Below the pieces are notes generated by a model. That model saw only the letters and a program-made list of their open reading frames with translations, ran no database searches and had not been told where the DNA came from. Of a stretch of DNA of 64,000 nucleotides, positions 46,040-49,465 are shown piece by piece. The stretch comes from Maribacter algarum (ex Zhang et al. 2020). GTDB lineage: Bacteria > Bacteroidota > Bacteroidia > Flavobacteriales > Flavobacteriaceae. The stretch is from assembly GCF_005885635.1 (NCBI RefSeq), contig NZ_VATY01000002.1, positions 248,001-312,000 of the forward strand, read 5' to 3'. Within the stretch, counting starts at the first letter, position 1; the number at the start of each line of letters is the position of its first letter. Made by a program: the position numbers and the translations under genes.

Positions 46040-48151
46040 CTAATAAAACTTCGCCAAAGTAATCACCAGAATACATAGAAAAAAGAAAGGGAAATAAGAA
46101 GCCTTGAAAATTTGATTTTCATTAAAATCAAAAATTGGGGCCTTGCTTTTGGCGTAGGTGATAAGATTCCATGTCGATAGAATAATCATGAGATAAGTCA
46201 CAAAATAGAAGTATTCCATATAAATCAAATCCGCCGTGATGATTTCTTTTCTCAAATCGATATGCGAGAAAATTAAAACGAAGAAAAAGGCTGCCATTCC
46301 TTCAATTATTCCTTGCCTTTCTTCTGTTTTAGAACACGCGACTAATAGAATATACATCATTATCAATACTACAAAAATTGGAATTAAATAGGTCACGAAT
46401 GTATTTAGGAGAATACGCCTGAGATCAATGTTGTAATGCAACACGGGCACTTCTTCAAAAAGGGTCTTCGAACCAAATCCAAAATCAGTATCGTATGATT
46501 CAACAGAGTAGTTAAAATAACTCTTCATAATATTATTGCCCGAAACCTTTACGTTTTGATTCAAACCTGGTTTCTTAGTGGGATTTGTGAATTCATAGCT
46601 TGCTAAATCAGGAGTAAAAATGAGATGATCTTCATTGCTGATAGGAACAATGTCCATACTGATATGCCGCTTGTCAAAAGGGAAATTTTCGTAATTCAGG
46701 TATTGTTGCAAGGTCACCCTAAAATCCCAACCAATCAGGAGGTAATCAGGACTGCCGGCAATGCCTTTTACTTTTTTACGGTAGATTTCTTCTACGAACG
46801 AAGCTTCTGCAAAAGGAGAGGTTTGAGGAAATAAGAATCCTTCTTCAACTTTTTCAATAAGGTCTATGGGGTATTTTTGCCAAACCGTTCCGCCAATATT
46901 CAAGTTGTAACTATTTTCAAAAGCCATACGCTGCACAAAAATCCCCGTTGGAATGGCTGTGCTTTTTGGAAGCTTTAATTCCTCTCTCCGCGTTTCTTGT
47001 TGATTTATAAAACTTCCCAAGCTTGATACATCAGCAATTGGAGGACTTTCTTCCGCATTTATTCTGCGGCTACCTGTATGCTCCAGATATCCTACCAAAA
47101 GAATATTAAAAATCAAAAGAAAGGTAGCTAAAGCACTCAATTGCCATATTTCTTGTCGGTCTAAATGGTCTTTATTGAAATGTATAAGTATAATCATTAA
47201 AAGAAAAGCCGAAAGCAACAAGGTCAACTTGATATACCGGTGATTCAGGGCCGCTTTACTGCCTAAGAGCTCGTTTTTAGAGAATGCCAATCCGATACCC
47301 CATCCGTTAGAAGGAATCTTATCATAAAAGAACAGTTCGGTATCATTACTGTCATCAGCAGTAAAAGCCACATTACCTGCTTCTCCCTTTAACAATCCTT
47401 CATAGGCTGATTTTAGAATGGTATTCTCTTCCGCATCACTTATGGTTTTGAGATTGGTAGTTCCGATATAGTCATTTACGGGATGCGATAAATACGTGCC
47501 CTCTTTGGAAGTAATAAGACCGTACCCCGTTTTTCCCAAACTCAATGAAAGAATCAGGCTCTTGAATCCACTTGTTACGAAACTCATGGTAATCGTTCCA
47601 CGCACTTGTCCTTTTTTTGGTCCAGAAGTATAGTGGAAAGGAATGCCATAATCGATATACCAATCTTTCGCACCTTTGGCATAATAGGGTTCTACCCATT
47701 TTGCACCATTGTCACGTACACCAGTATACCAAGCGGTTCCATCAGCCTTTGCATCCGTATAGTCATAACTTTCGCCAACAAATAGGTAATCGCTGGTTCC
47801 TTTATTGTAATATGGACAATAGAGTCTGCGTTCTTCGGAAAATGCAAAAGGCTCATAACAAGCGGTAATGCCTTGTAAGGCAGGAATCTTTAAAGAAGAC
47901 TCTTTAATTATGCGTTCTATTTCTTCTTGGGAATATTCATTTGCACCGAACTCATCCGCTAACCTTTCACCCTCGTTCACAATGCTTGAAAGAATAGCAT
48001 CCACCTGCTCCTTCAGATTGTTCATTGTGGTCAAGCCTTTTTCCTGAACAATTCGATTTCGCTCTTGCGTAAAGGAATAGAGTTCGTAAGCATGATAGAC
48101 CAAGGCCACGAATAGAATAACTGCAATCGCATATAGAATTTTCTTTACCAT
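46040..48151 (-). CDS. Cache sensor fused to pentameric ligand-gated ion channel-like module
   Basis: A 703-residue membrane protein; the ATG at 48151, one base after the porin stop, is chosen over the ATG at 48176-48178. Order seen (numbering from the upstream ATG): TM 11-33; double-Cache domain about 40-310 (AWYTGVRDNGAKWVEPYY, then GYGLITSKEGTYLSHP); two TMs at 313-333 and 345-365; a beta-sandwich 405-590 with the pro-loop NFPFDKRHISMDI; then four helices at 590-613, 622-640, 650-674 and 690-710. The last four match M1-M4 of prokaryotic pLGICs, and the topology fits a periplasmic C-terminal half. Ligand and ion are unknown. Confidence 0.85.
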   Translation of the reverse strand: MVKKILYAIAVILFVALVYHAYELYSFTQERNRIVQEKGLTTMNNLKEQVDAILSSIVNEGERLADEFGANEYSQEEIERIIKESSLKIPALQGITACYEPFAFSEERRLYCPYYNKGTSDYLFVGESYDYTDAKADGTAWYTGVRDNGAKWVEPYYAKGAKDWYIDYGIPFHYTSGPKKGQVRGTITMSFVTSGFKSLILSLSLGKTGYGLITSKEGTYLSHPVNDYIGTTNLKTISDAEENTILKSAYEGLLKGEAGNVAFTADDSNDTELFFYDKIPSNGWGIGLAFSKNELLGSKAALNHRYIKLTLLLSAFLLMIILIHFNKDHLDRQEIWQLSALATFLLIFNILLVGYLEHTGSRRINAEESPPIADVSSLGSFINQQETRREELKLPKSTAIPTGIFVQRMAFENSYNLNIGGTVWQKYPIDLIEKVEEGFLFPQTSPFAEASFVEEIYRKKVKGIAGSPDYLLIGWDFRVTLQQYLNYENFPFDKRHISMDIVPISNEDHLIFTPDLASYEFTNPTKKPGLNQNVKVSGNNIMKSYFNYSVESYDTDFGFGSKTLFEEVPVLHYNIDLRRILLNTFVTYLIPIFVVLIMMYILLVACSKTEERQGIIEGMAAFFFVLIFSHIDLRKEIITADLIYMEYFYFVTYLMIILSTWNLITYAKSKAPIFDFNENQIFKASYFPFFFLCILVITLAKFY

Positions 48152-48152
48152 T

Positions 48153-49334
48153 TTAAAAGTACAAACCGAAATTAACATTCAATCGATGATGCCACTCACC
48201 AGTACCATCTCCCGTAGTTAAAGCATCCGTTGAATTTGGGGTCAACCAGGGTTGGTTTCTCCCGCTGGCATAATCCACATAAATATACAGTGGTTTTATG
48301 GATATTAAGGCACCTAGTATATTCATTTGAGTGTCTTCCCAGGTGGCAATTGATTTATCCATATAGGTGTAATCGTTGTATAATTGTATGGATTGAAATC
48401 TACCTCTGTTAACCGGAATAGTATAGGCCAAGCCTATAGAATACATACTTGCTTTTGCAGCGGTGTTATATGGGAAATTATAGGCAGCTTGTTCCAGGAA
48501 TTCCCGACTTTCTCCCTCTGCATTTTTTGGTTTGTTATTGTATGTGATGAACTGGGTTTGCAGATTCCATCGTTTATAATCCAATTGATAATGGAGTCCT
48601 AATGCCGAATGATTTCCGACATCTTGGGTATCTATATTCCAAATACCGCCATATTGTAAGGAAGTGCCGAGTAGGTGTTTTGCCTTCTCACCCAATTTAT
48701 AATTAAAACGGATGTTAAACTGGTTCACTTCTTTATTTCTTCCGGAGAAATCATAGGAATACCGATTTGGAGAAACGGGATTATTATCGCTTAAGGTTAG
48801 CGCCTCGGCATTTTTGTAAAAACCAATATCTAATTTGATTCTATCATCTTCATAGTCATAGCTGATACCCATATCATGGTCATCTTCAAAACCCAAATAA
48901 AAGGGAAGTTGAAAAAACCAACTGTGTGAATTGAATTGTTGCGGACCAAAATAGCCGGGAATCAGACCTAATTTTAAATGACTTTTTTTGTTGAGATTGT
49001 ATTGTACCCAACCATATTTGAGGAAAGCTCCTCCAAAAGCCCCGGAGTAAAAACGTTGGTCGATGTGGATCTCCATAGGCCCATAAGCAGCATCAACATT
49101 AATGCGGAAAACTTCAAACCCGAAATCACCACCTCTTTTTTGTTGATTGGGTTTCCATGTAGAATTGTTATAGTTGTAGCGCAGGGCACCACCTAAGTCC
49201 ACTTTTAATTTTGGTTTTGTGATGCTGTCATTTTGAGAATATGATAGAATTGAAAACCCAAAAACAAAAAAAAGTAGCAACACCCTTTTAAGAGAGATGC
49301 GTTCGCTATTTTTTCCGAAAAGGGAATAGTTCAA
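48153..49334 (-). CDS. outer-membrane beta-barrel porin-like protein
   Basis: A porin-type barrel of about 393 residues with alternating amphipathic strands, many aromatic girdles and a terminal Phe (NFGLYF), as needed by the barrel assembly machinery. The signal peptide is VLLLFFVFGFSILSYSQ. No ATG exists in frame near it; a TTG at 49334 (giving NYSLFGKNS) is chosen, with TTG at 49415 as an alternative, so the start is uncertain. It resembles OprO/OprP-type phosphate-selective porins only in general form. The channel gene follows after one base, so the two form an operon. Confidence 0.8.
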   Translation of the reverse strand: MNYSLFGKNSERISLKRVLLLFFVFGFSILSYSQNDSITKPKLKVDLGGALRYNYNNSTWKPNQQKRGGDFGFEVFRINVDAAYGPMEIHIDQRFYSGAFGGAFLKYGWVQYNLNKKSHLKLGLIPGYFGPQQFNSHSWFFQLPFYLGFEDDHDMGISYDYEDDRIKLDIGFYKNAEALTLSDNNPVSPNRYSYDFSGRNKEVNQFNIRFNYKLGEKAKHLLGTSLQYGGIWNIDTQDVGNHSALGLHYQLDYKRWNLQTQFITYNNKPKNAEGESREFLEQAAYNFPYNTAAKASMYSIGLAYTIPVNRGRFQSIQLYNDYTYMDKSIATWEDTQMNILGALISIKPLYIYVDYASGRNQPWLTPNSTDALTTGDGTGEWHHRLNVNFGLYF

Positions 49335-49465
49335 TGAAAAACTGCATCGGTGGTAAGTCTTTTTCAAGAGGTAAATAGCACTAAAGGGTTGGTTTTCTAT
49401 TTGTGAAGATACCAAAAATCTAAAATTGATAGTGTCATCCTCCTAAAATGGCCTTTTCCTTACTG

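What the first reader, a model, noticed from the sequence alone, without database searches (positions are those of the whole stretch)
46040..49415. Operon of an outer-membrane barrel and a Cache-pLGIC fusion channel
The inner-membrane protein joins a periplasmic double-Cache domain, two helices, and a second half with the pLGIC plan: a beta-sandwich with the Cys-less pro-loop NFPFDKRHISMDI, then four helices. The M2-M3 stretch (GMAAFFFVLIFSHIDLRKEI then YFYFVTYLMII) parallels GLIC. Topology is self-consistent, with both sensor domains periplasmic. The porin stop and the channel ATG are one base apart, so the pair may bring a ligand or ion through the outer membrane and gate a channel with it. 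Some prokaryotic pLGICs are known to carry extra N-terminal domains; this operon link with a barrel I do not recall. The ligand and ion are inference.
Basis: partly seen in the sequence, partly recalled or inferred. Interest (0 to 1): 0.85.

Follow-up and report, generated by a model that had tools for sequence, protein, structure and literature searches.

The report
Bacterial neuroreceptor-like channel with porin partner
A flavobacterium carries a divergent relative of animal nerve-receptor channels, fused to a second sensor domain and encoded beside its own outer-membrane pore, whose sister pores mostly serve betaine-type transporters; this suggests a two-membrane sensor for small osmolytes, which has not been tested.

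Summary
ORF 46040-48151(-), 703 aa, is a helix, a periplasmic dCache_1 domain, two more helices, then a pentameric ligand-gated channel (pLGIC) module: beta-sandwich with pro-loop plus M1-M4. No Pfam or NCBIfam model recognises the module, but a 64-sequence profile matches six pLGICs at 98.1%, E 1e-13 (95.0%, E 4e-8 for the four over Pfam's cut-off); shuffled controls fail. The AlphaFold model (pLDDT 86) finds only pLGICs among the 50 PDB folds listed. One base upstream, the other gene encodes a barrel (pLDDT 85, nearest OprP). Cache-pLGIC fusions were described in 2004; a porin is not mentioned there. The pair occurs in 11 loci; other channel relatives read lack it. Sister porins precede BCCT betaine/choline/carnitine transporters in 19 of 25 regions, ProVWX in 1, sensor proteins in 2, other genes in 3 (DMSP-lyase-like in the one tested). 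I propose a sensor for onium osmolytes. Against it: the Cache domain lacks the Asp of the known amine motif; conduction, pentamer and ligand are untested. Of 67 genomes with relatives, 34 carry a contractile-injection marker, in six within 46 kb of the channel.

The parts
48153..49415 (-). Outer-membrane porin ORF (420 aa as opened; true start uncertain, probably 49334-49280)
   Evidence: No Pfam or NCBIfam match; AF2 pLDDT 85.2, beta-barrel; Foldseek nearest OprP 2o4v E 1.2e-13, then OprO
46040..48151 (-). Cache-pLGIC fusion protein, 703 aa
48152..48152 (-). Single base between porin stop and channel ATG (translational coupling inferred)
   Evidence: short same-strand gaps in the 10 other porin-linked loci
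48095..48151 (-). TM1 (residues 1-19)
   Evidence: hydropathy
47291..48052 (-). Periplasmic dCache_1 domain (residues 34-287)
   Evidence: Pfam E 7.1e-16; PDB 3li8 E 8e-10, 3lib E 3e-6
47177..47233 (-). TM2 (residues 307-325)
   Evidence: hydropathy
47084..47140 (-). TM3 (residues 338-356); the short ~380-aa relatives begin near the equivalent helix
46415..46960 (-). pLGIC-type ligand-binding beta-sandwich (residues 398-579)
   Evidence: AF2 strands, hhalign, Foldseek
46649..46687 (-). Cys-less pro-loop NFPFDKRHISMDI
   Evidence: conservation
46337..46411 (-). M1 (residues 581-605)
   Evidence: AF2
46244..46318 (-). M2 (residues 612-636), aromatic-rich, presumed pore helix
   Evidence: AF2; conservation
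46148..46222 (-). M3 (residues 644-668)
   Evidence: AF2
46046..46114 (-). M4 (residues 680-702)
   Evidence: AF2

Best explanation
The two genes make a two-membrane sensory module. The outer-membrane protein is an OprP-like porin from a lineage whose other members mostly precede inner-membrane systems for onium osmolytes (betaine, choline, carnitine, perhaps DMSP). Here the inner-membrane partner is not a transporter but a divergent pLGIC-superfamily receptor with an added N-terminal Cache sensor. Most likely the porin admits a small zwitterionic or cationic osmolyte to the periplasm, the osmolyte binds the pLGIC ligand-binding domain or the Cache domain, and a pentamer of the protein opens an ion pathway lined by M2. 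Shown by computation: pLGIC homology and fold, Cache domain, porin fold, conserved pairing, and the partners of the sister porins. Inferred: pentamer, conduction, ligand class and physiological output. By step: pLGIC homology about 0.97; works as a ligand-gated channel about 0.7; ligand an onium-type osmolyte about 0.35.
For: Homology: profile of 64 sequences against 6 pLGICs, 98.1%, E 1e-13, score 106, 277 columns from beta1 to M4; against only the 4 of them over Pfam's cut-off, 95.0%, E 3.8e-8, score 66, 186 columns; 7 shuffled or reversed controls score 16-28, best E 0.009. The profile search of the PDB lists 60 of 70 matches, all 60 pLGICs, but only two below E 0.01 (best 0.00098). Fold: pLDDT 86.2; the 50 listed of 893 Foldseek matches are all pLGICs, GLIC TM-score up to 0.75 by target length. 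Cache. Porin. Pairing: 10 loci besides the window, with other flanking genes in L011, L019, L020, L022, L023 and L025. Sister porins: 28 of 299 genomes have a match; of 25 regions read in 24 channel-less genomes, BCCT directly downstream in 19 and ProVWX in 1, an SBP_bac_3/PAS/SpoIIE sensor in 2, and in 3 another gene that is DMSP-lyase-like in the one tested. Channel-linked and other porins split 9 against 15 with 100/100 support. The window genome has no BCCT and no OpuAC match, so its porin serves neither.
Against: The Cache domain does not meet the known amine or amino-acid motif: the shared Asp is Ser here, and only 3 of 47 long forms keep Asp; the Asp mutant of PctD bound choline 162-fold more weakly (PMC10104139). 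The BCCT-linked porins are only about 37-47% identical to the window's, so specificity may have changed, and the window genome lacks the osmolyte transporters themselves. Six close channel relatives have no porin. M2 is unusually aromatic, and an acidic residue just before it is present in only 32 of 64 rows, so conduction is not assured. Single canonical pLGICs give weak profile matches (21.6% and 63.3%). No pentamer could be modelled. I found no linked output gene.
Confidence: 0.5

Rival explanations
1. The C-terminal half keeps the pLGIC fold but is a non-conducting receptor: Cache and ligand-binding domain pass a conformational signal to an unknown partner.
For: M2 carries a nearly invariant FFV....H...R pattern (second Phe 64/64, His 62/64, Arg 62/64), which looks structural rather than pore-like; acid just before M2 in only 32 of 64.
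Against: A beta-sandwich fused to four helices with the M1 Pro, pre-M1 Arg and pro-loop Asp mostly conserved is the gating machinery of channels (and general knowledge of pLGICs); the predicted cytoplasmic loops are short, leaving little through which to signal otherwise.
Confidence: 0.2
2. The ligand is not an osmolyte. The porin is a general or anion-type pore recruited for another solute or ion, and the Cache domain senses that.
For: Closest solved folds are the phosphate/pyrophosphate porins OprP and OprO; the Cache lacks the amine/amino-acid Asp; channel-linked porins form their own group; the genome has no BCCT or OpuAC match.
Against: Fold similarity at 14-16% identity does not give specificity; 20 of 25 sister porins precede a BCCT or glycine-betaine ABC system.
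Confidence: 0.3
3. The neighbours are independent genes kept together by genome history, with no joint function.
For: The channel lacks the porin in most relatives read; the porin occurs without the channel in 26 of 28 genomes.
Against: The pair stays adjacent, same order and strand, across Flavobacteriaceae and Saprospiraceae while flanking genes change, and the 9 porins of the pair that were put in the tree form one group.
Confidence: 0.08
4. The channel passes osmolyte or ions as an osmotic valve rather than sensing a ligand: it takes the place of the BCCT transporter behind the porin.
For: BCCT or channel lies behind homologous porins; 14 of 16 channel genomes tested have no BCCT match (G206 and G535 look like one genome).
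Against: pLGIC pores are ion channels (general knowledge) and the predicted M2 is hydrophobic; two periplasmic sensor domains argue for sensing.
Confidence: 0.1

Closest known systems
Prokaryotic ART-LGIC with MCP-N and Cache domains (Tasneem et al. 2004, PMC549065; Methanosarcina, Cytophaga, Microbulbifer)
   Same: N-terminal sensor with Cache, then pLGIC ligand-binding domain and four helices in one chain (passages). Members of the window's family with open frames of 696-722 aa occur in Methanosarcina (6 of 30 genomes, a seventh split) and are probably the proteins meant.
   Different: 'porin' occurs 0 times in the paper's main text; the neighbours it names are PBP-II, Cache and a Na+/H+ symporter.
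GLIC / ELIC / sTeLIC
   Same: Fold and near full-length profile similarity of the C-terminal half.
   Different: 11-14% identity in the structural alignments, aromatic M2, N-terminal TM helix, extra Cache domain.
DeCLIC
   Same: [quoted passage not shown] among the Foldseek hits.
   Different: DeCLIC's extra domain is two jelly-roll lobes; here it is a Cache domain with two further helices before the ligand-binding domain.
OprP / OprO porins
   Same: Nearest solved folds of the barrel.
   Different: 14-16% identity; no Pfam match; neighbours of sister porins point to onium osmolytes, not phosphate.
dCache_1AM amine sensors (PMC10104139)
   Same: Same domain family; 3lib, an amine-binding member, is a sequence match.
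   Different: The Asp of the motif is replaced by Ser.

Membership tests
pLGIC superfamily | Significant, near full-length sequence or profile similarity to known members | tested here: met
   98.1%, E 1e-13 over 277 columns with 6 pLGICs; 95.0%, E 3.8e-8 over 186 columns with the 4 over Pfam's cut-off; controls score 16-28
pLGIC superfamily | Beta-sandwich ligand-binding domain followed by four helices | tested here: met
pLGIC superfamily | Pro-loop with Pro and Asp, pre-M1 Arg, M1 Pro | tested here: met
   present in the window; 64/64, 56/64, 56/64, 63/64 in A3
pLGIC superfamily | Match to Pfam Neur_chan_LBD (a detection model, not a defining feature) | tested here: not met
   window protein none at E<=1; not among the 25 families shown of 42 for 64 members
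pLGIC superfamily | Homo- or heteropentamer | not testable with these tools
   only single chains can be predicted
pLGIC superfamily | Ligand-gated ion conduction | not testable with these tools
   needs electrophysiology or a flux assay
Cache-pLGIC architecture of 2004 | N-terminal Cache plus pLGIC core in one chain | tested here: met
dCache_1AM amine sensor | Conserved Asp (PctD D235) | tested here: not met
   Ser in the window; D in 3 of 47 long forms; alignment to 3lib
16-stranded porin (OprP/OprO type) | Outer-membrane beta-barrel fold | tested here: met
   (strand number not counted exactly)
16-stranded porin (OprP/OprO type) | Phosphate-selective arginine ladder | not tested
   no residue mapping was done

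The most novel reading that the evidence does not exclude
A prokaryotic acetylcholine-receptor relative has acquired its own outer-membrane porin by partner swap from betaine/DMSP uptake systems, giving a two-membrane receptor for algal osmolytes: porin, Cache pre-sensor and ligand-gated pore in one operon.
Probability: 0.3. Interest if true: 0.85.

Novelty: new variant of a known kind. Interest (0 to 1): 0.7.

Why it matters
The physiological ligands and roles of prokaryotic pLGICs are largely an open question (general knowledge). Here genome context names a small, buyable list of candidate ligands (betaine, DMSP, choline, carnitine, TMAO) and an assayable outer-membrane partner. The module is missed by the Pfam and NCBIfam models for the window protein; relatives come from records named as Bacteroidota, Proteobacteria, Nitrospirota, Cyanobacteria and archaea among others. 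It would extend the known range of the superfamily behind animal synaptic receptors.

Tried and rejected
Reading the C-half as an unrelated four-helix domain: rejected. Weak Pfam/NCBIfam hits (RseC_MucC, DUF3397, MerC, CbtA): below cut-off and partial. Amine or amino-acid Cache motif as a direct ligand call: not met. L009/G109, the eighth hit, matches at query residues 59-335 only, in a 1,512-aa open frame; dropped, so 7 of 299 genomes, the window's own included, carry the channel family. PDB sequence search with a porin profile of 9 rows: no hit up to E 10. Selectivity from M2: register ambiguous by one residue, no call made. Promoter and terminator scan: no more than chance. Taxonomy look-up of Maribacter added nothing.

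Papers. Searches returned none; one listed 15 of 27; one listed 4, among them PMC549065; 71 listed 12 of 4,250; one returned one paper (title and abstract start seen, on aminolipids in Ruegeria); 85 listed 12 of 510; 103 listed 15 of 235. The word porin is absent from the main texts of PMC549065, PMC4795631 and PMC9897478, in which I saw passages only, as in PMC10104139. All others: listings only.
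Full report
OBSERVATION. On the minus strand, the porin ORF (49415-48153) is followed by the 703-aa channel ORF (48151-46040), one base between stop and ATG. Pfam gives dCache_1 (E 7.1e-16) for residues 34-287, nothing above cut-off for the C-terminal half, and nothing for the porin; NCBIfam gives only weak partial hits to the channel, below cut-off, and none to the porin. 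The best solved relatives of the Cache part are 3li8, 3lic, 3lib and 9hvj.

IS THE C-HALF A pLGIC? A scan of genome contigs found 115 relatives, of which the best 80 were kept. They come mainly in two forms: about 700 aa with an N-terminal extension (Cache in those aligned), and about 380 aa with one N-terminal helix. From 74 usable loci I took 60, dropping 14 that were mostly near-copies, and added the window, L003, L007 and L008: alignment A3, 64 rows. Neur_chan_LBD is not among the 25 families shown of 42 for these 64, yet the A3 profile ranks GLIC chimeras and GLIC first in the PDB (70 matches, 60 shown, all 60 pLGICs; best E 0.00098, only two below 0.01). As a yardstick I took six of the nine loci found by the PF02931 model; four are over Pfam's cut-off, while L091 and L092 are not, though L091 matches GLIC and ELIC at about E 1e-12 and a GABA-receptor chimera at 5.9e-16. 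Profile against profile with all six: 98.1%, E 1e-13, score 106, 277 columns. With the four alone: 95.0%, E 3.8e-8, score 66, 186 columns; L091 alone 98.0%; single canonical sequences are weak (L093 63.3%, L090 21.6%). Three column shuffles, three block shuffles and the reversal of the six-row profile score 16-28, best E 0.009. AlphaFold2 on A3 gave pLDDT 86.2 and pTM 0.79 with strands and four helices in pLGIC order. Foldseek against the PDB: the 50 shown of 893 matches are all pLGICs; sTeLIC first (E 6.7e-12); GLIC TM-score up to 0.75 by target length; the C. elegans betaine receptor ACR-23 is rank 39. Key residues: pro-loop Pro 64/64 and Asp 56/64, pre-M1 Arg 56/64, M1 Pro 63/64. I conclude homology. 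M2 (RQGIIEGMAAFFFVLIFSHIDLRKE) is aromatic. If E611, just before M2, is taken as position -2', then 9' is Leu or Phe in 61 of 64 and 13' Val or Leu in 62 of 64, as in classical gates; but that position is acidic in only 32 of 64, the register is uncertain by one, and no selectivity or conduction claim follows.

THE PORIN. AlphaFold2 on 24 porins: pLDDT 85.2, beta-barrel. Foldseek: OprP first (E 1.2e-13, 14% identity), then OprO. Adjacent porin homologues occur in 10 loci besides the window: L003, L010-L013, L019, L020, L022, L023 and L025. Flanks differ from the window's in L011, L019, L020, L022, L023 and L025 while the pair persists. The closest channels without it, upstream DNA read, are L014-L017, L021 and L026; L018, L024 and L029 are cut by contig ends; no more distant locus shows one, though several hold little upstream DNA.

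WHAT THE SISTER PORINS DO. In 299 genomes of the family, 28 have a porin match and 7 have the channel (8 hits, one dropped); only G000 and G215 are in both lists. I read 25 regions in 24 of the 26 others (G277 and G294, weak partial matches, were not fetched). A BCCT transporter lies directly downstream on the same strand in 19; Pfam was run on three of these, all BCCT with E below 1e-190, and the other 16 rest on tblastn identity of 71-90% to one of them. One BCCT stretch (L137) holds a stop codon, and the L134 porin is split. ProVWX-like genes with an OpuAC protein follow in 1 (L111). A protein with SBP_bac_3, PAS and SpoIIE domains and a sub-threshold dCache_1 match follows in 2 (L132, L133; porin 34-37% identical). 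A gene of 431-435 aa follows in 3 remote ones (L135, L136, L138; porin 25-26% identical); Pfam on the L136 gene gives DMSP_lyase, E 1.7e-5, just under its cut-off. No relative of the channel was found in the 25 (tblastn). The porin tree of 24 rows, which holds 9 of the 11 channel-linked porins and the 15 of L105-L118, splits the two groups with 100/100 support; its midpoint root is for drawing only. The window genome has no BCCT match (2 of 16 channel genomes have one) and no OpuAC match (1 of 13 genomes searched, G220, which has no channel match).

MECHANISM. The porin lineage looks like an outer-membrane entry for betaine-like solutes, perhaps DMSP, that is combined with different inner-membrane partners: transporters, a multi-domain sensor protein, or, here, a Cache-pLGIC. 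The simplest reading is a dedicated sensor for such a solute. Against it, the Cache domain lacks the Asp that the amine and amino-acid motifs share (Ser here; Asp in 3 of 47 long forms). That Asp matters for choline binding in PctD (PMC10104139, passages). If the ligand is an onium compound, the pLGIC domain is the likelier site; pLGICs that bind such ligands include ACR-23, a target of betaine (PMC11377560, listing), and ELIC is activated by primary amines (PMC3119659, listing).

NOVELTY. Tasneem et al. 2004 (PMC549065, passages) described Cache fusions in Methanosarcina, Cytophaga and Microbulbifer. The window family has matches in 7 of 30 Methanosarcina genomes, 6 of them open frames of 696-722 aa, while PF02931 finds nothing in the 14 control genomes, which presumably include M. 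acetivorans (named among them). So it is probably the family they meant. The porin link, the partner swap and the injection-system context are not known to me from print. Three searches joined ligand-gated channels or ion channels with injection systems and found none; none joined porin with ligand-gated channel.

WIDER CONTEXT. Pvc16_N, a contractile-injection marker, is present in 34 of 67 genomes that carry the channel family (G206 and G535 look like one genome), against 13 of 208 gammaproteobacterial genomes after removing two known channel carriers from 15 of 210. The two sets are not matched by phylogeny and the 67 are not independent. Of the 34, the marker is on the channel's contig in 7: at 3.5, 4.5, 5.6, 23.5, 23.6 and 45 kb in six and 544 kb in one; in 27 it is on another contig. 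The window genome is one of those 27. This is about the relatives, not the window locus.

Noticed in passing
L042, L049, L055, L056, L060, L066, L070, L079, L080, L089; G113 near L008: Relatives of the channel sit in or beside contractile injection clusters: Pvc16_N and sheath in L042, AAA ATPase in L049, eCIS_core in L055, Tail_P2_I in L066; eCIS_core-like genes in 9 of 80 loci, 7 of 25 short-form and 2 of 47 long-form; Pvc16_N 3.5 kb from the channel in G113.
   Followed up: partly
L049:6852-11980, L070:3512-9047, L075:7809-12424: Three pLGIC-type genes together (long Cache form, a 366-370-aa gene, short form), as if encoding a heteromeric channel. The middle gene has weak, sub-threshold Neur_chan_LBD similarity in L049; the L070 genome shows a weak A3 match there.
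   Followed up: partly
L033-L036, L039 (downstream); L042, L048 (upstream): Peripla_BP_6-type binding-protein genes beside the long channel; Pfam run on L033 only (E 7e-50), the others judged by N-terminal sequence. In L048 the gene is on the opposite strand.
   Followed up: partly
L007:379-1497(-), L064 downstream: A GluR0-like gene (SBP_bac_3 plus Lig_chan and Ion_trans_2, with TVGYGD) directly next to the channel in L007 and, by N-terminal sequence, L064.
   Followed up: partly
L092: In Halobeggiatoa HSG11 a 1,090-aa open reading (cut by the locus end) places a pLGIC module between two binding-protein-like domains (names by eye); the same genome has 9 matches to the channel profile.
   Followed up: no
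L132, L133: Remote porins (34-37% identity) directly before ~1,360-aa SBP_bac_3/PAS/SpoIIE sensors with a sub-threshold dCache_1 match.
   Followed up: partly
L135, L136, L138: Remote porins (25-26% identity) followed by a 431-435-aa gene, DMSP-lyase-like by Pfam in L136, the only one tested (E 1.7e-5, below cut-off).
   Followed up: partly
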